Shown: piece after piece, positions 1-64,000 of the stretch | Layout: every line of letters begins with the position of its first letter | Numbering within the stretch: position 1 is the stretch's first letter | From: Amia ocellicauda | Taxonomy: Eukaryota > Chordata > Actinopteri > Amiiformes > Amiidae | Length of the DNA stretch: 64,000 nt | NCBI RefSeq assembly: GCF_036373705.1 | Contig: NC_089863.1 | Location: 4,423,444-4,487,443, forward strand | Reading direction: 5' to 3' | The notes under the pieces: model-generated | The model's database searches: none | Told to the model about the DNA's origin: nothing | The model's input: only the letters and a program-made list of their open reading frames with translations | Translations under genes and position numbers: made by a program

Positions 1-9
1 TTGAATACA

Positions 10-235
10 GTGTGGAGTAGTGGTTTGGGCTCTGTACCCTGTCGCACAGCACGGTGTGTGCAATCCCTGGTTCGCTGACTACTCTTGAGCAAGGGACTTT
101 AGCTAGATTGCACCAGTTAATGCCCACCCATGCCAATGGGTTAAGTGTAAGGAAAACAAAATGTGGTAATATCTCGTTAACATCTGTAATTTACCCTGGC
201 TTTGGTGTCTGCTAAGAAATCGAATTAAAAAATAC
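10..235 (+). mobile_element. tRNA-derived SINE, degraded, unit 0
   Basis: Most divergent SINE copy of the window. Near position 61-80 it has CCCTGGTTCGCTGACTAC where the others have TCTCTGGTACACTTACTAC, and GTAATTTACC where the others have GTAAGTCACC. It shares CTGTCGCACAG with units 4 and 8. Its tRNA pair lies to the left of the window. Confidence 0.8.
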
Positions 236-788
236 TTTGATATGAATCTCCATTGATTTATTTCTATGTTCAACATGTATAATTCATGTATTTATTATTA
301 TCTTCTCTCTGCATTTATTTTTAATTCTGCCTTGGATTATCCTACATACATGTCGCACAAGTGAATGTACAATGCATTCTGGCCCTTCTCATCACTACAA
401 CAAGCAAAGCCAAAATATGAAAGAGAAAGTGAGTTGAAAAGGTGAGGTGGTGTTTTTCTCTTTATATCTCTATTTACAGAGTAGACGAAATGCAGAGGAG
501 GAAATATAAATAGAAAAGAAGAAAAAATGTCAACGAAGAACTGTAAATGCACAGAGGGAAATGTGAACATAAAATTGGTATTACATACGGACATACGTTT
601 TTTCTTAGATCTATGTAAAAATGTAATATTTTATAGCATAGAGCGAAGTAATATGAACTGATACAGAATATTTGATGAAGTCTAAATACATCTGTTTGTT
701 CAAAACAGAATACACTGTATTGTTCTTGTTGTGAATACATTGGGGTGGATATATTTACGAATGGTATGGTGGTTGTGATCAAGAAGTG

Positions 789-793
789 AAAAA
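789..793 (-). terminator. First T-run downstream of tRNA-Ala (distal, putative pol III terminator)
   Basis: Five A on the + strand (TTTTT in the tRNA-Ala sense) lie 84 bp beyond the gene's 3' end. No run of four T occurs nearer. Pol III tRNA terminators usually sit within a few tens of bases, so the tRNA-Ala trailer would be unusually long. The same arrangement recurs in every unit. Confidence 0.45.
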
Positions 794-825
794 TGACGAC
801 CCCTCGTATGCTTGGGAGGATCTCA

Positions 826-840
826 GCAGGGCTGTCCTGC
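826..840. repeat. Short inverted repeat in the tRNA-Ala 3' flank
   Basis: GCAGG and CCTGC arms flank a 5-nt loop, and an outer TCAGC/GCTGA pair (from 824 to 847) could compete with it. It lies 37 bp past the tRNA-Ala 3' end and would fold in a long trailer. It recurs in every unit, except that unit-specific changes alter it (for example C to G in units 21, 22, 25 and 26). Confidence 0.4.
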
Positions 841-877
841 GGGCTGAAGACGGGTCTGATAGCAGATGAAGGAGCTC

Positions 878-950
878 TGGAGAATGCGGGCATCGGTCCC
901 GCCACCTCTCGCATGCTAAGCGAGCGCTCTACCATCTGAGCTAATTCCCC
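878..950 (-). tRNA. tRNA-Ala (AGC), unit 1, reference copy
   Basis: This is a 73-nt gene with a complete cloverleaf. The acceptor stem GGGGAAT pairs with ATTCTCC and includes the G3:U70 pair that defines alanine identity. The D arm is GCTC/GAGC. The anticodon stem CTCGC/GCGAG holds loop TTAGCAT, with AGC at 34-36. The T stem is GCGGG/CCCGC and the discriminator is A73. The A box (positions 8-18) fits the consensus. The T loop reads ACCGATG: A54 is normal for eukaryotic tRNA-Ala, but C55 replaces a nearly invariant T that becomes pseudouridine and is part of the B box. No CCA is encoded and there is no intron. It stands head to head with tRNA-Arg, 142 bp between their 5' ends. The first T-run downstream is 84 bp away. 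Identity is secure; activity is not. 34 of 40 copies match it exactly. Confidence 0.95.
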
Positions 951-1092
951 GCTGCTTCCTGTGGCAGCACCGCCCTGTGCAGCGCCGGCTGCAGGTTCGC
1001 TCTGAACTTTGCATCCCTTTGGGTTCACTGATACCCTGTTCCAGGACAGAAGAAGCAGTTTCCATCGGATTGCTTGAGTGCGTCCAAACGTG
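951..1092. promoter_or_regulatory. Shared 142-bp 5' flank between divergent tRNA-Ala and tRNA-Arg genes
   Basis: This GC-rich first half and mixed second half form the upstream region of both tRNA genes. No TATA-like element is visible, so transcription would rest on the internal A and B boxes. It holds two inverted repeats (GCTGC at 951-955 with GCAGC at 964-968, and 978-993). In units 3 and 7 the spacer is cut to 55 bp by an 87-bp deletion. Confidence 0.6.
978..993. repeat. Inverted repeat in the head-to-head spacer
   Basis: Arms TGCAGC and GCTGCA flank GCCG, a perfect 6-bp stem. It is present in every unit with a full spacer and missing from units 3 and 7, whose deletion removes it. Its function is unknown. 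Confidence 0.5.
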
Positions 1093-1165
1093 GGGCCAGT
1101 GGCGCAATGGATAACGCGTCTGACTACGAATCAGAAGACTGTAGGTTCGACTCCTACCTGGCTCG
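1093..1165 (+). tRNA. tRNA-Arg (ACG), unit 1, reference copy
   Basis: This is a 73-nt gene with a complete cloverleaf. The acceptor stem GGGCCAG pairs with CTGGCTC (one G:U at 2:71). The D arm starts GCGC, the anticodon stem is TCTGA/TCAGA with loop CTACGAA (ACG at 34-36), the variable loop is AGACT and the T stem GTAGG/CCTAC holds loop TTCGACT. G73 is the discriminator. With A34 edited to inosine, as in eukaryotic tRNA-Arg(ACG), it would read CGU, CGC and CGA. The A box TGGCGCAATGG (8-18) and B box GGTTCGACTCC (52-62) fit the pol III consensus. Position 37 is A, where the vertebrate and fly tRNA-Arg(ACG) genes I recall have G. No CCA or intron. TTTT follows 26 bp downstream. 29 of 40 copies are identical to it. 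Confidence 0.97.
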
Positions 1166-1598
1166 ACAGCATCTACACCCAACTCTCGCTGTTTTCTTCT
1201 CATATCTGGCGACCAGCAGCACTACATCATAGTGTGCCGGACCAGGCATGGGAGGACCATCAAAGTCACCGCTACCACACTCCAATCTCATTCCATGATG
1301 ATTATCAAACCATTGCACCAGTGTGACTGAGGTGCAACATACATTCAATGTGTTCATGGCTCCATCTGCTCATTCAATTCAACCTGTACCCGACTGCTGC
1401 CTCTCACCTGAACCGTAGTCAACAGAAATGCGCACTTGTATCACACCTTGTCGACACTGTTAATGTGTCATTGACACCCAATAACCTGACATGTTGCTTA
1501 ATCCGTTTAATCTCAATTCTTTCATAGTAAGACTCTGTTACAATAAGACACTTCCACAACACTACATTCATTTGAATAGACAATCACTTTTGAATACA
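1166..1598. other. Spacer between tRNA-Arg and SINE (representative copy)
   Basis: Apart from the tRNA-Arg terminator at its start I recognise nothing in this stretch. It recurs in every unit and carries most of the markers that split units into haplotypes: ACACCC or ACAACC just after the tRNA, CCGGACC or CCTGACC, TGTGTTC or TGTCTTC, AATAACC or AATATCC, and TAGACAATC (type A) or CAGATAATC (type B) just before the SINE. These markers assort in many combinations, which points to unequal exchange or gene conversion between units. Confidence 0.7.
1192..1195 (+). terminator. Pol III terminator of tRNA-Arg
   Basis: A TTTT run starts 27 nt past the tRNA-Arg 3' end, an ordinary distance for a tRNA gene. 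The run is kept in all 40 units at tRNA-Arg start +99 (+101 in units 18 and 23). Confidence 0.8.
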
Positions 1599-2754: not shown

Positions 2755-3187
2755 ACAGCATCTACAACCAACTCTCGCTGTTTTCTTCTCATATCTGGCG
2801 ACCAGCAGCACTACATCATAGTGTGCCGGACCAGGCATGGGAGGACCATCAAAGTCACCGCTACCACACTCCAATCTCATTCCATGATGATTATCAAACC
2901 ATTGCACCAGTGTGACTGAGGTGCAACATACATTCAATGTGTTCATGGCTCCATCTGCTCATTCAATTCAACCTGTACCCGACTGCTGCCTCTCACCTGA
3001 AACGTAGTCAGCAGAAATGCGCACTTGTATCACACCTTGTCGACACTGTTAATGTGTCATTGACACCCAATAACCTGACATGTTGCTTTATCCGTTTAAT
3101 CTCAATTCTTTCATAATAAGACTCTGTTACAATAAGACACTTCCACAACACTACATTCATTTGAATAGACAATCACTTTTGAATACA

Positions 3188-3413
3188 GTGTGGAGTAGTG
3201 GTTTGGGCTCTGTACCCTGTAGCACAGCACGGTGTGTGCAATCTCTGGTACACTTACTACTCTTGAGCAAGGGACTTTAGCTAGATTGCACCAGTTAATG
3301 CCCACCCATGCCAATGGGTTAAGTGTAAGGAAAACAAAATGTGGTAATATCTCGTTAACATCTGTAAGTCACCCTGGCTTTGGTGTCTGCTAAGAAATCG
3401 AATTAAAAAATAC
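3188..3413 (+). mobile_element. tRNA-derived SINE, degraded, unit 2
   Basis: Type A upstream spacer. The tail has CTTTGGTG, the form limited to units 0, 2-5, 7 and 8. Confidence 0.78.
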
Positions 3414-4055
3414 GTTGATATGAATCTCCATTGATTTATTTCTGTGTTCAACATGTATAATTCATGTATTTATTATTATCTTCTCTCTGCATTTATTTTT
3501 AATTCTGCCTTGGATTATCCTACATACATGTCGCACAAGTGAATGTACAATGCATTCTGGCCCTTCTCATCACTACAACAAGCAAAGCCAAAATATGAAA
3601 GAGAAAGTGAGTTGAAAAGGTGAGGTGGTGTTTTTCTCTTTATATCTCTATTTACAGAGTAGACGAAATGCAGAGGAGGAAATATAAATAGAAAAGAAGA
3701 AAAAATGTCAACGAAGAACTGTAAATGCACAGAGGGAAATGTGAACATAAAATTGGTATTACATACGGACATACGTTTTTTCTTAGATCTATGTAAAAAT
3801 GTAATATTTTATAGCATAGAGCGAAGTAATATGAACTGATACAGAATATTTGATGAAGTCTAAATACATCTGTTTGTTCAAAACAGAATACACTGTATTG
3901 TTCTTGTTGTGAATACATTGGGGTGGATATATTTACGAATGGTATGGTGGTTGTGATCAAGAAGTGAAAAATGACGACCCCTCGTATGCTTGTGAGGATC
4001 TCAGCAGGGCTGTCCTGCGGGCTGAAGACGGGTCTGGTAGCAGATGAAGGAGCTC

Positions 4056-4128
4056 TGGAGAATGCGGGCATCGGTCCCGCCACCTCTCGCATGCTAAGCG
4101 AGCGCTCTACCATCTGAGCTAATACCCT
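4056..4128 (-). tRNA. tRNA-Ala (AGC), unit 3, acceptor stem altered by deletion (possible pseudogene)
   Basis: An 87-bp deletion joins the gene after CTGAGCTAAT (4123) to ACCCTG of the spacer. The 5' acceptor strand becomes AGGGTAT in place of GGGGAAT. This leaves A1:C72 and T5:T68 mismatches but keeps the G3:U70 alanine signal. The rest of the gene is intact. The distance to tRNA-Arg drops to 55 bp. The deletion sits across a 2-bp AT match. Confidence 0.8.
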
Positions 4129-4183
4129 GTTCCAGGACAGAAGAAGCTGTTTCCATCGGATTGCTTGAGTGCGTCCAAACGTG

Positions 4184-4256
4184 GGGCCAGTGGCGCAATG
4201 GATAACGCGTCTGACTTCGAATCAGAAGACTGTAGGTTCGACTCCTACCTGGCTCG
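4184..4256 (+). tRNA. tRNA-Arg (TCG), unit 3, anticodon changed
   Basis: Differs from the reference only at position 34 (4217), A to T, giving anticodon TCG. The loop is CTTCGAA. It would read CGA and perhaps CGG instead of the inosine set. C35 and G36 are kept, so arginine identity should hold. Confidence 0.95.
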
Positions 4257-4689
4257 ACAGCATCTACACCCAACTCTCGCTGTTTTCTTCTCATATCTGG
4301 CGACCAGCAGCACTACATCATAGTGTGCCGGACCAGGCATGGGAGGACCATCAAAGTCACCGCTACCACACTCCAATCTCATTCCATGATGATTATCAAA
4401 CCATTGCACCAGTGTGACTGAGGTGCAACATACATTCAATGTGTTCATGGCTCCATCTGCTCATTCAATTCAACCTGTACCCGACTGCTGCCTCTCACCT
4501 GAACCGTAGTCAACAGAAATGCGCACTTGTATCACACCTTGTCGACACTGTTAATGTGTTTTTGACACCCAATATCCTGACATGTTGCTTAATCCGTTTA
4601 ATCTCAATTCTTTCATAATAAGACTCTGTTACAATAAGACACTTCCACAAAACTACATTCATTTGAACAGATAATCACTTTTGAATACA

Positions 4690-4914
4690 GTGTGGAGTAG
4701 TGGTTTGGGCTCTGTACCCTGTAGCACAGCACGGTGTGTGCAATCTCTGGTACACTTACTACTCTTGAGCAAGGGACTTTAGCTAGATTGCACCAGTTAA
4801 TGCCCACCCATGCCAATGGGTTAAGTGTAAGGAAAACAAAATGTGGTAATATCTCGTTAACATCTGTAAGTCACCCTGGCTTTGGTGTCTGCTAAGAAAT
4901 CGAGTTAAAGATAC
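4690..4914 (+). mobile_element. tRNA-derived SINE, degraded, unit 3
   Basis: Type B spacer, preceded by the marker GTGTTTTTGACAC. The tail end reads GAGTTAAAGATAC and is 1 bp shorter than most. Confidence 0.78.
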
Positions 4915-5030
4915 GTTGATATGAATCTCCATTGATTTATTTCTATGCTCAACATGTATAATTAATGTATATATTATTATCTTCTCTCTGCATTTATTTT
5001 TAATTCTGCCTTGGATTATCCTCCATACAT

Positions 5031-5038
5031 GATAGCCT
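5031..5038. other. 8-bp insertion (GATAGCCT) in the AT-rich spacer
   Basis: Present only here and at 11306, exactly 6,275 bp apart. It marks the four-unit higher-order repeat. Confidence 0.85.
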
Positions 5039-5564
5039 GTCGCACAAATGAATGTACAATGCATTCTGGCCCTTCTCATCACTACAACAGGCAAAGCCAA
5101 AATATGAAAGAGAACGTGAGTTGAAAAGGTGAGGTGGTGTTTTTCTCTTTATATCTCTATTTACAGAGTAGACGAAATGCAGAGGAGGAAATATAAATAG
5201 GAAAGAAGAAAAAATGTCAACGAAGAACTGTAAATGCACAGAGGGAAATGTGAACATAAAATTGGTATTACATACGGACATACGCTTTTTCTTAGATCTA
5301 TGTAAAAATGTAATATTTTATAGCATAGAGCGAAGTAATATGAACTGATACAGAATATTTGAAGAAGTCTAAATACATCTGTTTGTTCAAAACAGAATAC
5401 ACTGTATTGTTCTTGTTGTGAATACATTGGGGTGGATATATTTACGAATGGTATGGTGGTTGTGATCAAGAAGTGAAAAACGACGACCCCTCGTATGCTT
5501 GTGAGGATCTCAGCAGGGCTGTCCTGCGGGCTGAAGACGGGTCTGGTAGCAGATGAAGGAGCTC

Positions 5565-5637
5565 TGGAGAATGCGGGCATCGGTCCCGCCACCTCTCGCA
5601 TGCTAAGCGAGCGCTCTACCATCTGAGCTAATTCCCC
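5565..5637 (-). tRNA. tRNA-Ala (AGC), unit 4
   Basis: Same 73 nt as the reference. The full 142-bp spacer to tRNA-Arg is present, with GGGTGCACTG in it. Confidence 0.93.
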
Positions 5638-5779
5638 GCTGCTTCCTGTGGCAGCACCGCCCTGTGCAGCGCCGGCTGCAGGTTCGCTCTGAACTTTGCA
5701 TCCCTTTGGGTGCACTGATACCCTGTTCCAGGACAGAAGAAGCTGTTTCCATCGGATTGCTTGAGTGCGTCCAAACGTG

Positions 5780-5852
5780 GGGCCAGTGGCGCAATGGATA
5801 ACGCGTCTGACTTCGAATCAGAAGACTGTAGGTTCGACTCCTACCTGGCTCG
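5780..5852 (+). tRNA. tRNA-Arg (TCG), unit 4, anticodon changed
   Basis: Only position 34 (5813) differs from the reference, A to T. Unlike unit 3, this TCG copy has a full tRNA-Ala partner, so the anticodon change and the deletion are separable. Confidence 0.95.
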
Positions 5853-6285
5853 ACAGCATCTACACCCAACTCTCGCTGTTTTCTTCTCATATCTGGCGAC
5901 CAGCAGCACTACATCATAGTGTGCCGGACCAGGCATGGGAGGACCATCAAAGTCACCGCTACCACACTCCAATCTCATTCCATGATGATTATCAAACCAT
6001 TGCACCAGTGTGACTGAGGTGCAACATACATTCAATGTGTTCATGGCTCCATCTGCTCATTCAATTCAACCTGTACCCGACTGCTGCCTCTCACCTGAAC
6101 CGTAGTCAACAGAAATGCGCACTTGTATCACACCTTGTCGACACTGTTAATGTGTCATTGACACCCAATAACCTGACATGTTGCTTAATCCGTTTAATCT
6201 CAATTCTTTCATAATAAGACTCTGTTACAATAAGACACTTCCACAACACTACATTCATTTGAATAGACAATCACTTTTGAATACA

Positions 6286-6511
6286 GTGTGGAGTAGTGGT
6301 TTGGGCTCTGTACCCTGTCGCACAGCACGGTGTGTGCAATCTCTGGTACACTTACTACTCTTGAGCAAGGGACTTTAGCTAGATTGCACCAGTTAATGCC
6401 CACCCATGCCAATGGGTTAAGTGTAAGGAAAACAAAATGTGGTAATATCTCGTTAACATCTGTAAGTCACCCTGGCTTTGGTGTCTGCTAAGAAATCGAA
6501 TTAAAAAATAC
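6286..6511 (+). mobile_element. tRNA-derived SINE, degraded, unit 4
   Basis: Type A spacer. Carries CTGTCGCACAG, shared only with units 0 and 8. Confidence 0.78.
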
Positions 6512-7153
6512 GTTGATATGAATCTCCATTGATTTATTTCTATGTTCAACATGTATAATTCATGTATTTATTATTATCTTCTCTCTGCATTTATTTTTAA
6601 TTCTGCCTTGGATTATCCTACATACATGTCGCACAAGTGAATGTACAATGCATTCTGGCCCTTCTCATCACTACAACAAGCAAAGGCAAAATATGAAAGA
6701 GAACGTGAGTTGAAAAGGTGAGGTGGTGTTTTTCTCTTTATATCTCTATTTACAGAGTAGACGAAATGCAGAGGAGGAAATATAAATAGAAAAGAAGAAA
6801 AAATGTCAACGAAGAACTGTAAATGCACAGAGGGAAATGTGAACATAAAATTGGTATTACATACGGACATACGTTTTTTCTTAGATCTATGTAAAAATGT
6901 AATATTTTATAGCATAGAGCGAAGTAATATGAACTGATACAGAATATTTGATGAAGTCTAAATACATCTGTTTGTTCAAAACAGAATACACTGTATTGTT
7001 CTTGTTGTGAATACATTGGGGTGGATATATTTACGAATGGTATGGTGGTTGTGATCAAGAAGTGAAAAATGACGACCCCTCGTATGCTTGTGAGGATCTC
7101 AGCAGGGCTGTCCTGCGGGCTGAAGACGGGTCTGGTAGCAGATGAAGGAGCTC

Positions 7154-7226
7154 TGGAGAATGCGGGCATCGGTCCCGCCACCTCTCGCATGCTAAGCGAG
7201 CGCTCTACCATCTGAGCTAATTCCCC
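7154..7226 (-). tRNA. tRNA-Ala (AGC), unit 5
   Basis: Same 73 nt as the reference. The spacer has GAAGCAGTTTCC, a form shared with units 1, 9 and 11. Confidence 0.93.
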
Positions 7227-7368
7227 GCTGCTTCCTGTGGCAGCACCGCCCTGTGCAGCGCCGGCTGCAGGTTCGCTCTGAACTTTGCATCCCTTTGGGT
7301 TCACTGATACCCTGTTCCAGGACAGAAGAAGCAGTTTCCATCGGATTGCTTGAGTGCGTTCAAACGTG

Positions 7369-7441
7369 GGCCCAGTGGCGCAATGGATAACGCGTCTGAC
7401 TACGAATCAGAAGACTGTAGGTTCGACTCCTACCTGGCTCG
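7369..7441 (+). tRNA. tRNA-Arg (ACG), unit 5, acceptor-stem mismatch
   Basis: The acceptor starts GGCCCAG in place of GGGCCAG: G3 to C (7371), giving a C3:C70 mismatch in the middle of the stem. The anticodon is ACG and the internal boxes are intact, so it may be transcribed but fold less well. Confidence 0.9.
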
Positions 7442-7874
7442 ACAGCATCTACACCCAACTCTCGCTGTTTTCTTCTCATATCTGGCGACCAGCAGCACTA
7501 CATCATAGTGTGCCGGACCAGGCATGGGAGGACCATCAAAGTCACCGCTACCACACTCCAATCTCATTCCATGATGATTATCAAACCATTGCACCAGTGT
7601 GACTGAGGTGCAACATACATTCAATGTGTTCATGGCTCCATCTGCTCATTCAATTCAACCTGTACCCGACTGCTGCCTCTCACCTGAACCGTAGTCAACA
7701 GAAATGCGCACTTGTATCACACCTTGTCGACACTGTTAATGTGTTTTTGACACCCAATATCCTGACATGTTGCTTAATCCGTTTAATCTCAATTCTTTCA
7801 TAATAAGACTCTGTTACAATAAGACACTTCCACAAAACTACATTCATTTGAACAGATAATCACTTTTGAATACA

Positions 7875-8099
7875 GTGTGGAGTAGTGGTTTGGGCTCTGT
7901 ACCCTGTAGCACAGCACGGTGTGTGCAATCTCTGGTACACTTACTACTCTTGAGCAAGGGACTTTAGCTAGATTGCACCAGTTAATGCCCACCCATGCCA
8001 ATGGGTTAAGTGTAAGGAAAACAAAATGTGGTAATATCTCGTTAACATCTGTAAGTCACCCTGGCTTTGGTGTCTGCTAAGAAATCGAGTTAAAGATAC
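7875..8099 (+). mobile_element. tRNA-derived SINE, degraded, unit 5
   Basis: Type B with GTGTTTTTGACAC upstream and the 1-bp shorter tail, like units 3 and 7, but without the 8-bp insertion that follows those. Confidence 0.78.
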
Positions 8100-8741
8100 G
8101 TTGATATGAATCTCCATTGATTTATTTCTATGCTCAACATGTATAATTAATGTATTTATTATTATCTTCTCTCTGCATTTATTTTTAATTCTGCCTTGGA
8201 TTATCCTCCATACATGTCGCACAAATGAATGTACAATGCATTCTGGCCCTTCTCATCACTACAACAAGCAAAGGCAAAATATGAAAGAGAACGTGAGTTG
8301 AAAAGGTGAGGTGGTGTTTTTCTCTTTATATCTCTATTTACAGAGTAGACGAAATGCAGAGGAGGAAATATAAATAGAAAAGAAGAAAAAATGTCAACGA
8401 AGAACTGTAAAGGCACAGAGGGAAATGTGAACATAAAATTGGTATTACATACGGACATACGTTTTTTCTTAGATCTATGTAAAAATGTAATATTTTATAG
8501 CATAGAGCGAAGTAATATGAACTGATACAGAATATTAGATGAAGTCTAAATACATCTGTTTGTTCAAAACAGAATACACTGTATTGTTCTTGTTGTGAAT
8601 ACATTGGGGTGGATATATTTACGAATGGTATGGTGGTTGTGATCAAGAAGTGAAAAATGACGACCCCTCGTATGCTTGTGAGGATCTCAGCAGGGCTGTC
8701 CTGCGGGCTGAAGACGGGTCTGGTAGCAGATGAAGGAGCTC

Positions 8742-8814
8742 TGGAGAATGCGGGCATCGGTCCCGCCACCTCTCGCATGCTAAGCGAGCGCTCTACCATC
8801 TGAGCTAATTCCCC
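8742..8814 (-). tRNA. tRNA-Ala (AGC), unit 6
   Basis: Same 73 nt as the reference. Confidence 0.93.
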
Positions 8815-8956
8815 GCTGCTTCCTGTGGCAGCACCGCCCTGTGCAGCGCCGGCTGCAGGTTCGCTCTGAACTTTGCATCCCTTTGGGTTCACTGATACCC
8901 TGTTCCAGGACAGAAGAAGCTGTTTCCATCGGATTGCTTGAGTGCGTCCAAACGTG

Positions 8957-9029
8957 GGGCCAGTGGCGCAATGGATAACGCGTCTGACTACGAATCAGAA
9001 GACTGTAGGTTCGACTCCTACCTGGCTCG
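8957..9029 (+). tRNA. tRNA-Arg (ACG), unit 6
   Basis: Same 73 nt as the reference. First unit with the ACAACC/CTCACTG 3' flank that dominates from unit 12 on. Confidence 0.95.
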
Positions 9030-9462
9030 ACAGCATCTACAACCAACTCTCACTGTTTTCTTCTCATATCTGGCGACCAGCAGCACTACATCATAGTGTG
9101 CCGGACCAGGCATGGGAGGACCATCAAAGTCACCGCTACCACACTCCAATCTCATTCCATGATGATTATCAAACCATTGCACCAGTGTGACTGAGGTGCA
9201 ACATACATTCAATGTGTTCATGGCTCCATCTGCTCATTCAATTCAACCTGTACCCGACTGCTGCCTCTCACCTGAAACGTAGTCAACAGAAATGCGCACT
9301 TGTATCACACCTTGTCGACACTGTTAATGTGTCATTGACACCCAATATCCTGACATGTTGCTTAATCCGTTTAATCTCAATTCTTTCATAATAAGACTCT
9401 GTTACAATAAGACACTTCCACAACACTACATTCATTTGAATAGACAATCACTTTTGAATACA

Positions 9463-9688
9463 GTGTGGAGTAGTGGTTTGGGCTCTGTACCCTGTAGCAC
9501 AGCACGGTGTGTGCAATCTCTGGTACACTTACTACTCTTGAGCAAGGGACTTTAGCTAGATTGCACCAGTTAATGCCCACCCATGCCAATGGGTTAAGTG
9601 TAAGGAAAACAAAATGTGGTAATATCTCGTTAACATCTGTAAGTCACCCTGGCTATGGTGTCTGCTAAGAAATCGAATTAAAAAATAC
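9463..9688 (+). mobile_element. tRNA-derived SINE, degraded, unit 6
   Basis: Type A spacer; CTATGGTG tail form. Confidence 0.78.
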
Positions 9689-10330
9689 GTTGATATGAAT
9701 CTCCATTGATTTATTTCTGTGTTCAACATGTATAATTCATGTATTTATTATTATCTTCTCTCTGCATTTATTTTTAATTCTGCCTTGGATTATCCTCCAT
9801 ACATGTCGCACAAGTGAATGTACAATGCATTCTGGCCCTTCTCATCACTACAACAGGCAAAGCCAAAATATGAAAGAGAAAGTGAGTTGAAAAGGTGAGG
9901 TGGTGTTTTTCTCTTTATATCTCTATTTACAGAGTAGACGAAATGCAGAGGAGGAAATATAAATAGGAAAGAAGAAAAAATGTCAACGAAGAACTGTAAA
10001 TGCACAGAGGGAAATGTGAACATAAAATTGGTATTACATACGGACATACGCTTTTTCTTAGATCTATGTAAAAATGTAATATTTTATAGCATAGAGCGAA
10101 GTAATATGAACTGATACAGAATATTTGAAGAAGTCTAAATACATCTGTTTGTTCAAAACAGAATACACTGTATTGTTCTTGTTGTGAATACATTGGGGTG
10201 GATATATTTACGAATGGTATGGTGGTTGTGATCAAGAAGTGAAAAATGACGACCCCTCGTATGCTTGTGAGGATCTCAGCAGGGCTGTCCTGCGGGCTGA
10301 AAACGGGTCTGGTAGCAGATGAAGGAGCTC

Positions 10331-10403
10331 TGGAGAATGCGGGCATCGGTCCCGCCACCTCTCGCATGCTAAGCGAGCGCTCTACCATCTGAGCTAATAC
10401 CCT
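10331..10403 (-). tRNA. tRNA-Ala (AGC), unit 7, acceptor stem altered by deletion (possible pseudogene)
   Basis: Same deletion junction as unit 3 (after 10398), hence the same A1:C72 and T5:T68 mismatches with G3:U70 kept. The identical junction 6,275 bp away shows duplication after the deletion. Confidence 0.8.
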
Positions 10404-10458
10404 GTTCCAGGACAGAAGAAGCTGTTTCCATCGGATTGCTTGAGTGCGTCCAAACGTG

Positions 10459-10531
10459 GGGCCAGTGGCGCAATGGATAACGCGTCTGACTTCGAATCAG
10501 AAGACTGTAGGTTCGACTCCTACCTGGCTCG
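10459..10531 (+). tRNA. tRNA-Arg (TCG), unit 7, anticodon changed
   Basis: T34 (10492) is the only difference from the reference. Twin of unit 3. Confidence 0.95.
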
Positions 10532-10964
10532 ACAGCATCTACACCCAACTCTCGCTGTTTTCTTCTCATATCTGGCGACCAGCAGCACTACATCATAGTG
10601 TGCCGGACCAGGCATGGGAGGACCATCAAAGTCACCGCTACCACACTCCAATCTCATTCCATGATGATTATCAAACCATTGCACCAGTGTGACTGAGGTG
10701 CAACATACATTCAATGTGTTCATGGCTCCATCTGCTCATTCAATTCAACCTGTACCCGACTGCTGCCTCTCACCTGAACCGTAGTCAACAGAAATGCGCA
10801 CTTGTATCACACCTTGTCGACACTGTTAATGTGTTTTTGACACCCAATATCCTGACATGTTGCTTAATCCGTTTAATCTCAATTCTTTCATAATAAGACT
10901 CTGTTACAATAAGACACTTCCACAAAACTACATTCATTTGAACAGATAATCACTTTTGAATACA

Positions 10965-11189
10965 GTGTGGAGTAGTGGTTTGGGCTCTGTACCCTGTAGC
11001 ACAGCACGGTGTGTGCAATCTCTGGTACACTTACTACTCTTGAGCAAGGGACTTTAGCTAGATTGCACCAGTTAATGCCCACCCATGCCAATGGGTTAAG
11101 TGTAAGGAAAACAAAATGTGGTAATATCTCGTTAACATCTGTAAGTCACCCTGGCTTTGGTGTCTGCTAAGAAATCGAGTTAACGATAT
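10965..11189 (+). mobile_element. tRNA-derived SINE, degraded, unit 7
   Basis: Type B; the tail reads GAGTTAACGATAT, two changes from unit 3, so the twins have begun to diverge. Confidence 0.78.
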
Positions 11190-11305
11190 GTTGATATGAA
11201 TCTCCATTGATTTATTTCTATGCTCAACATGTATAATTAATGTATATATTATTATCTTCTCTCTGCATTTATTTTTAATTCTGCCTTGGATTATCCTCCA
11301 TACAT

Positions 11306-11313
11306 GATAGCCT
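11306..11313. other. 8-bp insertion (GATAGCCT), second copy
   Basis: Matches the insertion at 5031. Confidence 0.85.
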
Positions 11314-11839
11314 GTCGCACAAATGAATGTACAATGCATTCTGGCCCTTCTCATCACTACAACAGGCAAAGCCAAAATATGAAAGAGAACGTGAGTTGAA
11401 AAGGTGAGGTGGTGTTTTTCTCTTTATATCTCTATTTACAGAGTAGACGAAATGCAGAGGAGGAAATATAAATAGGAAAGAAGAAAAAATGTCAACGAAG
11501 AACTGTAAATGCACAGAGGGAAATGTGAACATAAAATTGGTATTACATACGGACATACGCTTTTTCTTAGATCTATGTAAAAATGTAATATTTTATAGCA
11601 TAGAGCGAAGTAATATGAACTGATACAGAATATTTGAAGAAGTCTAAATACATCTGTTTGTTCAAAACAGAATACACTGTATTGTTCTTGTTGTGAATAC
11701 ATTGGGGTGGATATATTTACGAATGGTATGGTGGTTGTGATCAAGAAGTGAAAAACGACGACCCCTCGTATGCTTGTGAGGATCTCAGCAGGGCTGTCCT
11801 GCGGGCTGAAGACAGGTCTGGTAGCAGATGAAGGAGCTC

Positions 11840-11912
11840 TGGAGAATGCGGGCATCGGTCCCGCCACCTCTCGCATGCTAAGCGAGCGCTCTACCATCTG
11901 AGCTAATTCCCC
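11840..11912 (-). tRNA. tRNA-Ala (AGC), unit 8
   Basis: Same 73 nt as the reference. The 3' flank has a CpG to CpA change (GAAGACAGG). Confidence 0.93.
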
Positions 11913-12054
11913 GCTGCTTCCTGTGGCAGCACCGCCCTGTGCAGCGCCGGCTGCAGGTTCGCTCTGAACTTTGCATCCCTTTGGGTGCACTGATACCCTG
12001 TTCCAGGACAGAAGAAGCTGTTTCCATCGGATTGCTTGAGTGCGTCCAAACGTG

Positions 12055-12127
12055 GGGCCAGTGGCGCAATGGATAACGCGTCTGACTTCGAATCAGAAGA
12101 CTGTAGGTTCGACTCCTACCTGGCTCG
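12055..12127 (+). tRNA. tRNA-Arg (TCG), unit 8, anticodon changed
   Basis: T34 (12088) is the only difference from the reference. Twin of unit 4. Last TCG copy in the window. Confidence 0.95.
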
Positions 12128-12560
12128 ACAGCATCTACACCCAACTCTCGCTGTTTTCTTCTCATATCTGGCGACCAGCAGCACTACATCATAGTGTGCC
12201 GGACCAGGCATGGGAGGACCATCAAAGTCACCGCTACCACACTCCAATCTCATTCCATGATGATTATCAAACCATTGCACCAGTGTGACTGAGGTGCAAC
12301 ATACATTCAATGTGTTCATGGCTCCATCTGCTCATTCAATTCAACCTGTACCCGACTGCTGCCTCTCACCTGAACCGTAGTCAACAGAAATGCGCACTTG
12401 TATCACACCTTGTCGACACTGTTAATGTGTCATTGACACCCAATAACCTGACATGTTGCTTAATCCGTTTAATCTCAATTCTTTCATAATAAGACTCTGT
12501 TACAATAAGACACTTCCACAACACTACATTCATTTGAATAGACAATCACTTTTGAATACA

Positions 12561-12786
12561 GTGTGGAGTAGTGGTTTGGGCTCTGTACCCTGTCGCACAG
12601 CACGGTGTGTGCAATCTCTGGTACACTTACTACTCTTGAGCAAGGGACTTTAGCTAGATTGCACCAGTTAATGCCCACCCATGCCAATGGGTTAAGTGTA
12701 AGGAAAACAAAATGTGGTAATATCTCGTTAACATCTGTAAGTCACCCTGGCTTTGGTGTCTGCTAAGAAATCGAATTAAAAAATAC
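12561..12786 (+). mobile_element. tRNA-derived SINE, degraded, unit 8
   Basis: Type A with CTGTCGCACAG, like units 0 and 4. Confidence 0.78.
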
Positions 12787-13428
12787 GTTGATATGAATCT
12801 CCATTGATTTATTTCTATGTTCAACATGTATAATTCATGTATTTATTATTATCTTCTCTCTGCATTTATTTTTAATTCTGCCTTGGATTATCCTACATAC
12901 ATGTCGCACAAGTGAATGTACAATGCATTCTGGCCCTTCTCATCACTACAACAAGCAAAGGCAAAATATGAAAGAGAACGTGAGTTGAAAAGGTGAGGTG
13001 GTGTTTTTCTCTTTATATCTCTATTTACAGAGTAGACGAAATGCAGAGGAGGAAATATAAATAGAAAAGAAGAAAAAATGTCAACGAAGAACTGTAAATG
13101 CACAGAGGGAAATGTGAACATAAAATTGGTATTACATACGGACATACGTTTTTTCTTAGATCTATGTAAAAATGTAATATTTTATAGCATAGAGCGAAGT
13201 AATATGAACTGATACAGAATATTTGATGAAGTCTAAATACATCTGTTTGTTCAAAACAGAATACACTGTATTGTTCTTGTTGTGAATACATTGGGGTGGA
13301 TATATTTACGAATGGTATGGTGGTTGTGATCAAGAAGTGAAAAATGACGACCCCTCGTATGCTTGTGAGGATCTCAGCAGGGCTGTCCTGCGGGCTGAAG
13401 ACGGGTCTGGTAGCAGATGAAGGAGCTC

Positions 13429-13501
13429 TGGAGAATGCGGGCATCGGTCCCGCCACCTCTCGCATGCTAAGCGAGCGCTCTACCATCTGAGCTAATTCCC
13501 C
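13429..13501 (-). tRNA. tRNA-Ala (AGC), unit 9
   Basis: Same 73 nt as the reference. Confidence 0.93.
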
Positions 13502-13643
13502 GCTGCTTCCTGTGGCAGCACCGCCCTGTGCAGCGCCGGCTGCAGGTTCGCTCTGAACTTTGCATCCCTTTGGGTGCACTGATACCCTGTTCCAGGACAG
13601 AAGAAGCAGTTTCCATCGGATTGCTTGAGTGCGTCCAAACGTG

Positions 13644-13716
13644 GGGCCAGTGGCGCAATGGATAACGCGTCTGACTACGAATCAGAAGACTGTAGGTTCG
13701 ACTCCTACCTGGCTCG
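13644..13716 (+). tRNA. tRNA-Arg (ACG), unit 9
   Basis: Same 73 nt as the reference. A private GTGCTGGACC lies in the 3' spacer. Confidence 0.95.
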
Positions 13717-14149
13717 ACAGCATCTACACCCAACTCTCGCTGTTTTCTTCTCATATCTGGCGACCAGCAGCACTACATCATAGTGTGCTGGACCAGGCAT
13801 GGGAGGACCATCAAAGTCACCGCTACCACACTCCAATCTCATTCCATGATGATTATCAAACCATTGCACCAGTGTGACTGAGGTGCAACATACATTCAAT
13901 GTGTTCATGGCTCCATCTGCTCATTCAATTCAACCTGTACCCGACTGCTGCCTCTCACCTGAACCGTAGTCAACAGAAATGCGCACTTGTATCACACCTT
14001 GTCGACACTGTTAATGTGTCATTGACACCCAATATCCTGACATGTTGCTTAATCCGTTTAATCTCAATTCTTTCATAATAAGACTCTGTTACAATAAGAC
14101 ACTTCCACAACACTACATTCATTTGAATAGACAATCACTTTTGAATACA

Positions 14150-15017: not shown

Positions 15018-15090
15018 TGGAGAATGCGGGCATCGGTCCCGCCACCTCTCGCATGCTAAGCGAGCGCTCTACCATCTGAGCTAATTCCCC
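15018..15090 (-). tRNA. tRNA-Ala (AGC), unit 10
   Basis: Same 73 nt as the reference. Spacer to its left has GAAGAAATGTAAAGG, shared with unit 12. Confidence 0.93.
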
Positions 15091-26428: not shown

Positions 26429-26861
26429 ACAGCATCTACAACCAACTCTCACTGTTTTCTTCTCATATCTGGCGACCAGCAGCACTACATCATAGTGTGC
26501 CGGACCAGGCATGGGAGGACCATCAAAGTCACCGCTACCACACTCCAATCTCATTCCATGATGATTATCAAACCATTGCACCAGTGTGACTGAGGTGCAA
26601 CATACATTCAATGTGTTCATGGCTCCATCTGCTCATTCAATTCAACCTGTACCCGACTGCTGCCTCTCACCTGAACCGTAGTCAACAGAAATGCGCACTT
26701 GTATCACACCTTGTCGACACTGTTAATGTGTCATTGACACCCAATAACCTGACATGTTGCTTAATCCGTTTAATCTCAATTCTTTCATAATAAGACTCTG
26801 TTACAATAAGACACTTCCACAACACTACATTCATTTGAACAGATAATCACTTTTGAATACA

Positions 26862-27087
26862 GTGTGGAGTAGTGGTTTGGGCTCTGTACCCTGTAGCACA
26901 GCACGGTGTGTGCAATCTCTGGTACACTTACTACTCTTGAGCAAGGGACTTTAGCTAGATTGCACCAGTTAATGCCCACCCATGCCAATGGGTTAAGTGT
27001 AAGGAAAACAAAATGTGGTAATATCTCGTTAACATCTGTAAGTCACCCTGGCTATGGTGTCTGCTAAGAAATCGAATTAAAAAATAC
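26862..27087 (+). mobile_element. tRNA-derived SINE, degraded, unit 17
   Basis: Type B spacer. Confidence 0.78.
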
Positions 27088-27729
27088 GTTGATATGAATC
27101 TCCATTGATTTATTTCTGTGTTCAACATGTATAATTCATGTATTTATTATTATCTTCTCTCTGCATTTATTTTTTATTCTGCCTTGGATTATCCTCCATA
27201 CATGTCGCACAAATGAATGTACAATGCATTCTGGCCCTTCTCATCACTACAACAAGCAAAGCCAAAATATTAAAGAGAACGTGAGTTGAAAAGGTGAGGT
27301 GGTGTTTTTCTCTTTATATCTCTATTTACAGAGTAGACGAAATGCAGAGGAGGAAATATAAATAGAAAAGAAGAAAAAATGTCAACGAAGAACTGTAAAT
27401 GCACAGAGGGAAATGTGAACATAAAATTGGTATTACATACGGACATACGATTTTTCTTAGATCTATGTAAAAATGTAATATTTTATAGCATAGAGCGAAG
27501 TAATATGAACTGAAACAGACTATTTGAAGAAGTCTAAATACATCTGCTTGTTCAAAACAGAATACACTGTTTGGTTCTTGTTGTGAATACATTGGGGTGG
27601 ATATATTTACGAATGGTATGGTGGTTGTGATCAAGAAGTGAAAAATGATGACCCCTCGTATGCTTGTGAGGATCTCAGCAGGGCTGTCCTGCGGGCTGAC
27701 GACGGGTCTGGTAGCAGATGAAGGAGCTC

Positions 27730-27802
27730 TGGAGAATGCGGGCATCGGTTCCGCCACCTCTCGCATGCTAAGCGAGCGCTCTACCATCTGAGCTAATTCC
27801 CC
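27730..27802 (-). tRNA. tRNA-Ala (AGC), unit 18, T-stem mismatch
   Basis: G53 to A, giving A53:C61 at the base pair that closes the T loop and changing the B box further. Shared with unit 23. Confidence 0.85.
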
Positions 27803-27944
27803 GCTGCTTCCTGTGGCAGCACCGCCCTGTGCAGCGCCGGCTGCAGGTTCGCTCTGAACTTTGCATCCCTTTGGGTTCACTGATACCCTGTTCCAGGACA
27901 GAAGAAGCTGTTTCCATCGGATTGCTTGAGTGCGTCCAAACGTG

Positions 27945-28019
27945 GGGCCAGTGGCGCAATGGATAACGCGTCTGACTACGAATCAGAAGACTGTAGAGGT
28001 TCGACTCCTACCTGGCTCG
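27945..28019 (+). tRNA. tRNA-Arg (ACG), unit 18, 2-nt insertion in T arm (possible pseudogene)
   Basis: 75 nt long. The T-stem 5' strand reads GTAGAGG in place of GTAGG, an extra AG that could come from slippage. Either the stem bulges or two of its five pairs are lost. The anticodon and B box sequence remain. Its Ala partner is also altered. Confidence 0.85.
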
Positions 28020-28452
28020 ACAGCATCTACAACCAACTCTCACTGTTTTCTTCTCATATCTGGCGACCAGCAGCACTACATCATAGTGTGCCTGACCAGG
28101 CATGGGAGGACCATCAAAGTCACCGCTACCACACTCCAATCTCATTCCATGATGATTATGAAACCAATGCACCAGTGTGACTGAGGTGCAACATACATTC
28201 AATGTGTTCATGGCTCCATCTGCTCATTCAATTCAACCTGTACCCGACTGCTGCCTCTCACCTGAAACGTAGTCAACAGAAATGCGCACTTGTATCACAC
28301 CTTGTCGACACTGTTAATGTGTCATTGACACCCAATAACCTGACATGTTGCTTAATCCGTTTAATCTCAATTCTTTCATAATAAGACTCTGTTACAATAA
28401 GACACTTCCACAACACTACATTCATTTGAACAGATAATCACTTTTGAATACA

Positions 28453-48390: not shown

Positions 48391-48463
48391 TGGAGAATGC
48401 GGGCATCGGTCCCGACACCTCTCGCATGCTCAGCGCGCGCTCTACCATCTGAGCTAATTCCCC
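48391..48463 (-). pseudogene. tRNA-Ala (AGC), unit 31, likely pseudogene
   Basis: Three changes against the reference: T28 to G breaks an anticodon-stem pair, T33 to G removes the universal U-turn base, and G49 to T breaks the T stem. The anticodon triplet AGC itself remains. Two more private changes lie in the adjoining spacer (48586, 48605). Confidence 0.85.
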
Positions 48464-61317: not shown

Positions 61318-61390
61318 GGGCCAGTGGCGCAATGGATAACACGTCTGACTACGAATCAGAAGACTGTAGGTTCGACTCCTACCTGGCTCG
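61318..61390 (+). tRNA. tRNA-Arg (ACG), unit 39, D-stem change
   Basis: G24 to A (61341), a CpG to CpA change that breaks C11:G24. Confidence 0.9.
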
Positions 61391-61823
61391 ACAGCATCTA
61401 CAACCAACTCTCACTGTTTTCTTCTCATATCTGGCGACCAGCAACACTACATCATAGTGTGCCTGACCAGGCATGGGAGGACCATCAAAGTCACCGCTAC
61501 CACACTCCAATCTCATTCCATGATGATTATCAAACCATTGCACCAGTGTGACTGAGGTGCAACATACATTCAATGTGTTCATGGCTCCATCTGCTCATTC
61601 AATTCAACCTGTACCCGACTGCTGCCTCTCACCTGAACCGTAGTCAACAGAAATGCGCACTTGTATCACACCTTGTCGACACTGTTAATGTGTCATTGAC
61701 ACCCAATAACCTGACATGTTGCTTAATCCGTTTAATCTCAATTCTTTCATAATAAGACTCTGTTACAATAAGACACTTCCACAACACTACATTCATTTGA
61801 ACAGATAATCACTTTTGAATACA

Positions 61824-62049
61824 GTGTGGAGTAGTGGTTTGGGCTCTGTACCCTGTAGCACAGCACGGTGTGTGCAATCTCTGGTACACTTACTACTCTT
61901 GAGCAAGGGACTTTAGCTAGATTGCACCAGTTAATGCCCACCCATGCCAATGGGTTAAGTGTAAGGAAAACAAAATGTGGTAATATCTCGTTAACATCTG
62001 TAAGTCACCCTGGCTATGGTGTCTGCTAAGAAATCGAATTAAAAAATAC
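61824..62049 (+). mobile_element. tRNA-derived SINE, degraded, unit 39
   Basis: Type B spacer. Confidence 0.78.
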
Positions 62050-62691
62050 GTTGATATGAATCTCCATTGATTTATTTCTGTGTTCAACATGTATAATTCA
62101 TGTATTTATTATTATCTTCTCTCTGCATTTATTTTTTATTCTGCCTTGGATTATCCTCCATACATGTCGCACAAATGAATGTACAATGCATTCTGGCCCT
62201 TCTCATCACTACAACAAGCAAAGCCAAAATATGAAAGAGAACGTGAGTTGAAAAGGTGAGGTGGTGTTTTTCTCTTTATATCTCTATTTACAGAGTAGAC
62301 GAAATGCAGAGGAGGAAATATAAATAGAAAAGAAGAAAAAATGTCAACGAAGAACTGTAAATGCACAGAGGGAAATGTGAACATAAAATTGGTATTACAT
62401 ACGGACATACGATTTTTCTTAGATCTATGTAAAAATGTAATATTTTATAGCATAGAGCGAAGTAATATGAACTGAAACAGACTATTTGAAGAAGTCTAAA
62501 TACATCTGCTTGTTCAAAACAGAATACACTGTTTGGTTCTTGTTGTGAATACATTGGGGTGGATATATTTACGAATGGTATGGTGGTTGTGATCAAGAAG
62601 TGAAAAATGATGACCCCTCGTATGCTTGTGAGGATCTCAGCAGGGCTGTCCTGCGGGCTGAAGACGGGTCTGGTAGCAAATGAAGGAGCTC

Positions 62692-62764
62692 TGGAGAATG
62701 CGGGCATCGGTCCCGCCACCTCTCGCATGCTAAGCGAGCGCTCTACCATCTGAGCTAATTCCCC
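62692..62764 (-). tRNA. tRNA-Ala (AGC), unit 40
   Basis: Same 73 nt as the reference. Private GGTAGCAAATG in the 3' flank; the left spacer is haplotype C. Confidence 0.93.
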
Positions 62765-62906
62765 GCTGCTTCCTGTGGCAGCACCGCCCTGTGCAGCGCC
62801 GGCTGCAGGTTCGCTCTGAACTTTGCATCCCTTTGGGTTCACTGATACCCTGTTCCAGGACAGAAGAAGCTGTTTCCATCGGATTGCTTGAGTGCGTCCA
62901 AACGTG

Positions 62907-62979
62907 GGGCCAGTGGCGCAATGGATAACGCGTCTGACTACGAATCAGAAGACTGTAGGTTCGACTCCTACCTGGCTCG
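62907..62979 (+). tRNA. tRNA-Arg (ACG), unit 40
   Basis: Same 73 nt as the reference; 3' flank as in unit 38. Confidence 0.95.
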
Positions 62980-63412
62980 AAAGCATCTACATCCAACTCT
63001 CACTGTTTTCTTCTCATATCTGGCGACCAGCAGCACTACATCATAGTGTGCCGGACCAGGCATGGGAGGACCATCAAAGTCACCGCTACCACACTCCAAT
63101 CTCATTCCATGATGATTATCAAACCAATGCACCAGTGTGACTGAGGTGCAACATACATTCAATGTCTTCATGGCTCCATCTGCTCATTCAATTCAACCTG
63201 TACCCGACTGCTGCCTCTCACCTGAAACGTAGTCAACAGAAATGCGCACTTGTATCACACCTTGTCGACACTGTTAATGTGTCATTGACACCCAATAACC
63301 TGACATGTTGCTTAATCCGTTTAATCTCAATTCTTTCATAATAAGACTCTGTTACAATAAGACACTTCCACAACACTACATTCATTTGAACAGATAATCA
63401 CTTTTGAATACA

Positions 63413-63638
63413 GTGTGGAGTAGTGGTTTGGGCTCTGTACCCTGTAGCACAGCACGGTGTGTGCAATCTCTGGTACACTTACTACTCTTGAGCAAGGGAC
63501 TTTAGCTGGATTGCACCAGTTAATGCCCACCCATGCCAATGGGTTAAGTGTAAGGAAAACAAAATGTGGTAATATCTCGTTAACATCTGTAAGTCACCCT
63601 GGCTATGGTGTCTGCTAAGAAATCGAATTAAAAAATAC
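63413..63638 (+). mobile_element. tRNA-derived SINE, degraded, unit 40
   Basis: Type B; TAGCTGGATTGC. The AT-rich spacer after it runs to the window end, before the next tRNA pair. Confidence 0.78.
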
Positions 63639-64000
63639 GTTGATATGAATCTCCATTGATTTATTTCTGTGTTCAACATGTATAATTCATGTATTTATTA
63701 TTATCTTCTCTCTGCATTTATTTTTAATTCTGCCTTGGATTATCCTCCATACATGTCGCACAAATGAATGTACAATGCATTCTGGCCCTTCTCATCACTA
63801 CAACAAGCAAAGGCAAAATATGAAAGAGAACGTGAGTTGAAAAGGTGAGGTGGTGTTTTTCTCTTTATATCTCTATTTACAGAGTAGACGAAATGCAGAG
63901 GAGGAAATATAAATAGAAAAGAAGAAAAAATGTCAACGAAGAACTGTAAAGGCACAGAGGGAAATGTGAACATAAAATTGGTATTACATACGGACATACG

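What the first reader, a model, noticed from the sequence alone, without database searches (positions are those of the whole stretch)
1..64000. Megasatellite-like array of divergent tRNA-Ala / tRNA-Arg gene pairs
At least 64 kb is made only of a 1,589-bp unit with one head-to-head pair of tRNA genes, 80 tRNA genes in all, and it continues past both edges. Tandem tRNA repeats are known in vertebrates (Xenopus 3.18-kb tDNA, large zebrafish tRNA clusters), but I do not know of this Ala/Arg divergent unit with an embedded SINE.
Basis: partly seen in the sequence, partly recalled or inferred. Interest (0 to 1): 0.8.

Follow-up and report, generated by a model that had tools for sequence, protein, structure and literature searches.

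The report
Giant array of paired tRNA genes
This window is the middle of a quarter-megabase block of about 150 near-identical repeats, each carrying two back-to-back transfer-RNA genes, next to a second tRNA repeat block; it resembles the arrayed tRNA genes that zebrafish and frogs use for eggs and embryos, but that use is not shown here.

Summary
The window is 40 full copies (plus part of one) of a 1,589-bp unit, about 99% identical, each with a head-to-head tRNA-Ala(AGC)/tRNA-Arg(ACG) pair; 79 of 80 tRNA places pass Rfam's cut-off. The source genome (unnamed, 988 Mb) was held. The block is about 245 kb on one contig, partly read and partly sampled: about 154 unit lengths, of which about 7 are probably a false duplication at an assembly gap. 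Its right end abuts a second tRNA array (Leu/Leu/Ser; 1,229- and 1,800-bp units), giving a compound tRNA locus of about 375 kb. Another contig holds an irregular cluster of canonical Ala/Arg pairs in the same head-to-head order. The array's Arg differs from these by one base (G37 to A), its Ala by two (A48 to G, T55 to C), all in 99 of 99 units read. tRNA variants arise but stay rarer than spacer variants, a hint of selection. Best reading: a concertedly evolving tRNA megasatellite amplified from a canonical pair, probably for oocyte/embryo tRNA supply; expression is inferred, not tested. Main rival: a largely silent satellite. The kind is known (Xenopus, zebrafish, human 1q23.3); this composition, layout and array-specific isodecoders were not found in the searches made.

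The parts
1..64000 (.). Part of the Ala/Arg tRNA megasatellite: 40 complete units plus 597 bp of a 41st
   Evidence: Unit starts and lengths; pairwise differences
1..1589 (+). First complete unit (phase used here: position 1 = TTGAATACAGTGTGGAGTAGTGG)
1..231 (+). SINE-like segment; its 3' tail (from about 185) resembles the tail of two dispersed elements in the flank
   Evidence: (79% over 48 bp); tRNA-like head and V-SINE kinship recalled, not tested
878..950 (-). tRNA-Ala(AGC), unit 1; recurs in each unit to 62692-62764
   Evidence: ARAGORN; Rfam RF00005 53.2 bits
951..1092 (.). 142-bp spacer between the divergent Ala and Arg genes
1093..1165 (+). tRNA-Arg(ACG) with A37, unit 1; recurs in each unit to 62907-62979
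   Evidence: ARAGORN; Rfam 63.7 bits; A37 in 99 of 99 units
1192..1195 (+). First T4 run downstream of Arg (begins at nt 27 after the gene) in 40 of 40 window units: candidate Pol III terminator
3179..4680 (+). 1,502-bp unit with an 87-bp deletion that removes the first 7 nt of Ala and part of the spacer; Ala place drops to 42.3 bits
9454..10955 (+). Second 1,502-bp unit with the same 87-bp deletion
4184..4256 (+). tRNA-Arg with anticodon TCG (A34 to T); also 5780-5852, 10459-10531, 12055-12127
3179..9453 (+). Four-unit block whose relatives follow at 9454-15729 (unit pairs differ by 7, 3, 9 and 7 substitutions): internal segmental duplication
26853..28443 (+). 1,591-bp unit with a 2-bp insertion in Arg and a G-to-A change in Ala; the same two changes recur in unit 34800
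48391..48463 (-). Ala copy with three substitutions, called by neither ARAGORN nor Rfam

Best explanation
SHOWN: a tandem tRNA gene megasatellite. About 154 unit lengths (probably about 147 real) of a 1,589-bp unit with a divergent tRNA-Ala(AGC)/tRNA-Arg(ACG) pair form a block of about 245 kb that ends directly against a second tRNA array; the pattern of shared variants shows exchange between units. The same genome has a small irregular cluster of canonical Ala/Arg pairs in the same head-to-head order. INFERRED: the array's pair was amplified from an ancestral copy of that canonical pair and is kept alike by unequal crossing-over and gene conversion. INFERRED, less sure: it works as a dosage amplifier, with Pol III transcribing many copies when very large amounts of tRNA are needed (oocyte and early embryo), while the array is silent in most somatic cells, where the canonical pairs suffice.
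For: Extent and layout: left edge C20:4346821; array present in the right-hand samples L029, L030, L031, L035, L036; change to the Leu/Leu/Ser array between C20:4591443 and 4591463; that array's 30-mer occurs 60 times, all at C20:4592522-4718938. Copy number: an exact Ala-5'-flank 32-mer occurs 196 times (152 + 44 by strand), 0 for the reversed control; the A37 Arg 30-mer 172 times against 11 for the canonical G37 form. Source pair: 7 of 8 canonical Arg sites in the C2 cluster have a canonical Ala at a constant 274-bp offset on the other strand; array Arg differs from the C2 copy by 1 base, Ala by 2. Exchange: 401 of 1,378 site pairs violate the four-gamete test in 40 units; exact duplications of 2.6-4.9 kb at about 3, 4, 19 and 22 units' distance, gap flanks aside. 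Selection hint: in 99 units the 15 variable tRNA sites are mostly singletons (mean log minor-allele count 0.41); of 1,589 rotations of the same windows round the unit (the true place included) 2 are as low, and 0 of 1,298 with little overlap; unchanged after dropping the 6 probably duplicated units. [quoted passage not shown]
Against: No expression data. The array Ala has lost T55 of the T-loop/B box in 99 of 99 units and scores lower than the C2 copy (53.2 against 59.1 bits). The first T4 run begins at nt 27 after Arg in 40 of 40 window units and at nt 85 after Ala in 39 of 40, against nt 4 and nt 6 in the C2 pair (by eye). Variable-site density is not lower in the tRNA genes (15 of 146 sites against 117 of 1,443). 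Other forms of the rotation test are weaker: 31 of 1,589 for the share of sites with count 3 or more, 47 of 1,589 for diversity, 63 after dropping duplicated units, and 87 of 1,589 with the window alone; diversity in the SINE-like segment is about as low as in Arg (0.0054 and 0.0056). Linkage was not modelled. The folds are cloverleaf-like but not unusually stable (11 and 19 of 200 shuffles as low).
Confidence: 0.5

Rival explanations
1. A largely silent satellite: a tRNA pair caught in a tandem amplification that grew by unequal crossing-over and drift, packed into heterochromatin; the canonical C2 genes do the work.
For: Ala T55C in all 99 units read, distant T-runs, low-scoring partners in the neighbouring array (Ser places 31.1-45.3 bits), a broken inverted copy and an old ~80% relict elsewhere. 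In Arabidopsis a tandem Ser/Tyr tRNA cluster is silenced in most tissues (PMC12308677, passages).
Against: 86 of 99 Ala and 87 of 99 Arg (74 ACG + 13 TCG) are otherwise at consensus; tRNA variants stay rarer than spacer variants; Arg scores no lower than the C2 copy (63.7 against 61.8 bits).
Confidence: 0.35
2. A chromatin boundary or insulator: the array's value is Pol III factor binding and chromosome architecture rather than tRNA, as proposed for the human 1q23.3 tDNA repeat.
For: A human tDNA tandem repeat of similar layout binds CTCF and is proposed as a boundary; tRNA genes have shown barrier activity (PMC4041453, passages).
Against: No match to a recalled 14-position CTCF consensus better than 3 mismatches in the unit; no chromatin data.
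Confidence: 0.08
3. An assembly artefact: the array is much shorter in the animal and was expanded by the assembler.
For: 10,933 bp on either side of a 200-N gap outside the window are identical, probably an unmerged overlap of about 7 units.
Against: No N in the window; units carry different substitutions in a mosaic (mean 15.4 differences); further units on a separate contig, C231, though that could be the other haplotype.
Confidence: 0.05

Closest known systems
Zebrafish chromosome 4 long-arm tRNA clusters (PMC11417395, PMC11075544; passages read)
   Same: Large repetitive tRNA clusters beside few isolated genes; the two contexts can encode different isodecoders
   Different: In Danio nearly all adjacent pairs are parallel and K-N, K-S, R-T pairs are most frequent (PMC2888827, section 6 read); here head-to-head Ala/Arg at a fixed 1,589-bp period. 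Linkage to 5S or snRNA genes not tested here (search not answered)
Xenopus tandem tDNA repeats, oocyte-type (3.18-kb repeat recalled; PMC11500080 passages read)
   Same: Kilobase-scale tandem units with tRNA genes, many copies
   Different: Different tRNA set and unit size (recalled); developmental expression is known there, not here
Human 1q23.3 tDNA VNTR (PMC4041453; passages read)
   Same: Head-to-tail repeat units with tRNA genes on both strands, about 98% identical
   Different: 7.3-kb GC-rich unit with five tRNA genes, 9-43 units per allele, CTCF-bound; here 1.6 kb, two tRNA genes, about 150 units, no good CTCF-like site found
Entamoeba tRNA gene arrays (PMC2652664; start of abstract in a search listing only)
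   Same: Tandem arrays of units with up to 5 tRNA genes
   Different: Protist in which almost all tRNA genes are in arrays; here canonical Ala and Arg genes remain outside the array

Membership tests
Tandem tRNA gene (tDNA) macro/megasatellite | Head-to-tail repeats of a kilobase-scale unit carrying tRNA genes | tested here: met
   40 complete units in the window; block of 244,623 bp, 154 unit lengths, partly sampled
Tandem tRNA gene (tDNA) macro/megasatellite | Homogenised copies (concerted evolution) | tested here: met
   Mean 15.4 differences per unit; four-gamete violations 401 of 1,378; exact long duplications
Tandem tRNA gene (tDNA) macro/megasatellite | Copy number varies between individuals | not testable with these tools
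   One assembly only
Oocyte/maternal-type tRNA arrays (Xenopus, zebrafish) | Array isodecoder distinct from dispersed genes of the same anticodon | tested here: met
   Arg G37A and Ala A48G, T55C in 99 of 99 units against the two C2 pairs read; 172 A37 against 11 G37 sites
Oocyte/maternal-type tRNA arrays (Xenopus, zebrafish) | Expression in oocytes or early embryo and less in soma | not testable with these tools
   No expression data held
Oocyte/maternal-type tRNA arrays (Xenopus, zebrafish) | Intact internal Pol III promoter (A and B boxes) | tested here: inconclusive
   Arg has GGTTCGACTCC as in the recalled B-box consensus; Ala has T55C in all 99 units; activity not tested
Human 1q23.3-type tDNA boundary repeat | CTCF motif in the unit | tested here: not met
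   Only 3-mismatch matches to a recalled 14-position consensus
SINE (V-SINE-like) | tRNA-like head, body, LINE-derived 3' tail; dispersed copies | tested here: inconclusive
   Tail resembles that of two elements in the 123-kb flank (alignment score 28 against a best of 26.5 in 200 shuffles); no other copy of the whole segment there at E 1e-6 except the inverted unit

The most novel reading that the evidence does not exclude
The block is a dedicated stage-specific translation locus whose tRNAs are chemically different from the somatic ones: with A37 the Arg cannot carry a G37 modification (m1G37 is common in tRNAs reading CNN codons; recalled), with C55 the Ala cannot carry the near-universal pseudouridine 55 (recalled), and 13 of 99 Arg copies are recoded to a TCG anticodon. 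The egg or embryo would then translate with a modification-poor, array-only tRNA pool supplied by two adjacent megasatellites.
Probability: 0.2. Interest if true: 0.8.

Novelty: new variant of a known kind. Interest (0 to 1): 0.55.

Why it matters
In one genome the same divergent Ala/Arg pair exists both as a few canonical copies and as about 150 array copies that differ by diagnostic bases, so reads could be assigned to one or the other without mapping ambiguity. That makes the zebrafish/Xenopus question (are arrayed tRNA genes the maternal supply?) directly testable in another genome, and shows how tRNA dosage, isodecoder change and satellite dynamics can combine at one locus.

Tried and rejected
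Other RNA genes in the unit: none; the only further Rfam family up to E = 1 in the first 8 kb was antisense to Arg and far below its cut-off. Protein genes: the longest ATG ORF of the consensus unit (153 aa, minus strand) overlaps Ala and its copy at 14614-15075 has no Pfam match at E 0.001. TRF: nothing, period limit 500. A simple higher-order repeat: not supported, mean difference by lag runs only from 11.8 (lag 4) to 16.6 over lags 1-20. Homology of spacer and flanks between array and C2 pair: none (106, 103 and 186 of 300 shuffles as good), so common origin rests on tRNA sequence and order. CTCF motif: nothing convincing. 5S linkage as in zebrafish: search did not complete. Place of 43 of the 44 reverse-strand 32-mer matches: not found, since the lists stop after about 100 places. 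Genome-wide tRNA census: only 63 of 56,076 first-look candidates were scored. Literature: in the results listed by ten searches (listings capped at 10-30) I saw no divergent Ala/Arg tandem array; seven papers were opened, passages only, plus one whole section of PMC2888827; the library lacks most subscription papers.
Full report
WHAT IS IN THE WINDOW. The window is made only of one unit: 40 complete copies and 597 bp of a 41st; 33 of 40 are exactly 1,589 bp. Copies differ by 15.4 substitutions on average (0-37). Each holds tRNA-Ala(AGC) on the minus strand (unit 878-950) and tRNA-Arg(ACG) on the plus strand (1093-1165), head to head over 142 bp. ARAGORN genes, Rfam 79 of 80 places. 34 of 40 Ala and 29 of 40 Arg are at consensus; 4 Arg are recoded to TCG, two units carry an 87-bp deletion into Ala, two share a 2-bp insertion in Arg plus a change in Ala. 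No other RNA family or convincing protein gene was found. Positions 1 to about 231 look like a SINE: about 48 bp at its 3' end match, at 79%, an element in the flank, and one further flank element has the same tail (alignment score 28 against a best of 26.5 in 200 shuffles). The tRNA-like head and V-SINE kinship are recalled, not tested.

THE WHOLE BLOCK. The source genome is held without a name: 988,188,214 bases, 385 contigs; the window is C20:4423444-4487443 of a 36.2-Mb contig. That it is a ray-finned fish is inference from recalled repeat sequences and was not tested. I took 200 kb to the left, which hold two 200-N gaps: the array begins abruptly at C20:4346821, inside the unit (position 847), about 1 kb from a reverse-transcriptase ORF. 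To the right I read 10 kb without a break and then samples; pattern lists show the unit's rhythm on to about 4.529 Mb, where the list stops. The last piece of a unit, an internally deleted one, ends near 4591443 and the second array is recognised from 4591463. So the main block is 244,623 bp, 154 unit lengths; the part from 4.497 to 4.589 Mb was sampled, not read through. One of the gaps lies inside the array, left of the window; the 10,933 bases on its two sides are identical. I take this as an unmerged contig overlap, so about 7 units are probably false.

THE NEIGHBOUR. The second array has 1,229-bp and 1,800-bp units with tRNA-Leu (AAG or TAG) on the minus strand where it can be read, and tRNA-Leu(TAA) and a tRNA-Ser(GCT)-like gene on the plus strand. 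A 30-mer from it occurs 60 times in the genome, all between C20:4592522 and 4718938; 30 of 59 spacings are 1,800 and 10 are 1,229. Ala/Arg units reappear at 4720445-4721443 at 96% identity; neither array is seen in the 2-kb samples at 4727444 and 4777444. A direct comparison of the two units listed no match. The plus-strand Leu and Ser places score 36.4-43.9 and 31.1-45.3 bits, some of them degenerate-looking. Parts of these units are withheld and read N, so they are not fully described.

OTHER COPIES. An exact 32-mer at the Ala 5' end occurs 152 times on one strand and 44 on the other, 0 in the reversed control; one of the 44 is in the lone broken inverted unit at C20:4308047-4309472, the other 43 were not placed. 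A contig of 31,975 bp (C231) holds more units, one with Arg-TCG. On C8 lies an old relative, 80% identical over 520 aligned bases, also with A37, so the family appears older than the roughly 1% divergence within the array, as concerted evolution predicts.

WHERE THE PAIR CAME FROM. A canonical Arg(ACG) pattern (G37; recalled) hits 11 places, 8 of them at C2:15.679-15.778 Mb; a canonical Ala(AGC) pattern (recalled) hits 12, 10 of them in the same 100 kb. 7 of these 8 Arg lie at a constant 274-bp offset (pattern start to pattern start) from an Ala on the other strand: the same head-to-head order, at irregular 4-25-kb spacing. The two places that I read also carry a tRNA-Tyr and are 99.86% identical over 1,380 bp. 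The array Arg differs from the C2 Arg by one base, G37 to A; the Ala by two, A48 to G and T55 to C, all present in 99 of 99 array units. Spacers and flanks do not align better than shuffles. The array pair is best read as an amplified, diverged descendant of such a pair.

DOES IT WORK? For: Arg scores 63.7 bits against 61.8 for the C2 copy, and in 99 units the tRNA genes have as many variable sites (15 of 146 against 117 of 1,443) but their variants stay rare: of 1,589 rotations of the tRNA windows round the unit, the true place included, 2 give as low a mean log count, and none of 1,298 with little overlap. This is what weak purifying selection on many copies would give. The 99 are the complete forward units read on C20 after dropping 1 of 100 that held the gap; 6 of them are probably counted twice, and dropping these leaves the result (2 of 1,589). 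Against: weaker results for other measures (31 of 1,589 for the share of commoner variants; 47 and, without the doubled units, 63 of 1,589 for diversity; 87 of 1,589 in the window alone); linkage not modelled; T55C in the Ala B box, lower Ala score (53.2 against 59.1); first T4 run at nt 85 after Ala (39 of 40 units; nt 28 in unit 9454) and nt 27 after Arg (40 of 40), whereas in the C2 pair such runs begin at nt 6 and nt 4 (by eye). Folds are cloverleaf-like but not unusually stable. So Arg looks fit to work; Ala is doubtful.

MECHANISM. Shown: tandem repetition, exchange between units, two abutting arrays, a canonical counterpart elsewhere. Inferred: dosage amplification for a stage with very high tRNA demand. 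The support is by analogy: zebrafish egg and early-embryo tRNAs come from repetitive regions, later ones from isolated genes (PMC11417395, passages); the same was put forward as a hypothesis for the chromosome-4 block (PMC11075544, passages); Xenopus oocyte-specific tRNA genes are tandem arrays activated at genome activation (PMC11500080, passages). The split between canonical cluster and array found here fits that scheme but does not prove it. The main rival is a silent satellite; a boundary role has no support here.

NOVELTY. Tandem tRNA arrays in vertebrates are known (human 1q23.3, PMC4041453, passages; clusters of fifty and more tDNAs in teleosts, PMC2888827, section read). In the results listed by ten literature searches I saw no divergent Ala/Arg array and no pair of abutting tRNA megasatellites; the library is open-access only. 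I file it as a new variant of a known kind.

Noticed in passing
G000:C20:4592522-4718938 (loci L032-L034, L037, L040-L042): Second tRNA megasatellite, Leu/Leu/Ser, with short (1,229 bp) and long (1,800 bp) unit forms, directly abutting the Ala/Arg array.
   Followed up: partly
G000:C2:15679056-15778162 (L048, L049): Irregularly spaced canonical tRNA-Ala/Arg pairs; the two places read also carry tRNA-Tyr and are almost identical although 82 kb apart.
   Followed up: partly
G000:C27:4252197-4550512 (L044, L045): Many high-scoring tRNA places over ~300 kb; the two pieces read hold tRNA-Cys(GCA) and internal repeats of about 1.1-1.6 kb: probably a third tRNA array.
   Followed up: partly
G000:C188 and C5:52.425 Mb (L046, L047): tRNA-Lys(TTT) genes in the two pieces read; similar-scoring places recur along C188 and on C5.
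   Followed up: no
G000:C20:4366657-4366856: 200-N gap in the array with 10,933 identical bases on both sides: likely a false duplication in the assembly.
   Followed up: yes
G000:C8:23711760-23712492 (L052): Lone ~80% relict of the array unit with an A37 Arg-like gene, far from the array.
   Followed up: partly
window 4184, 5780, 10459, 12055 and 9 further units outside the window: 13 of 99 units carry Arg with anticodon TCG instead of ACG; most sit in clusters, so the recoded form spreads with the units.
   Followed up: partly
G000:C20:4253520-4254960: ORF with a laminin N-terminal domain (netrin-like by recall) about 92 kb left of the array edge.
   Followed up: no
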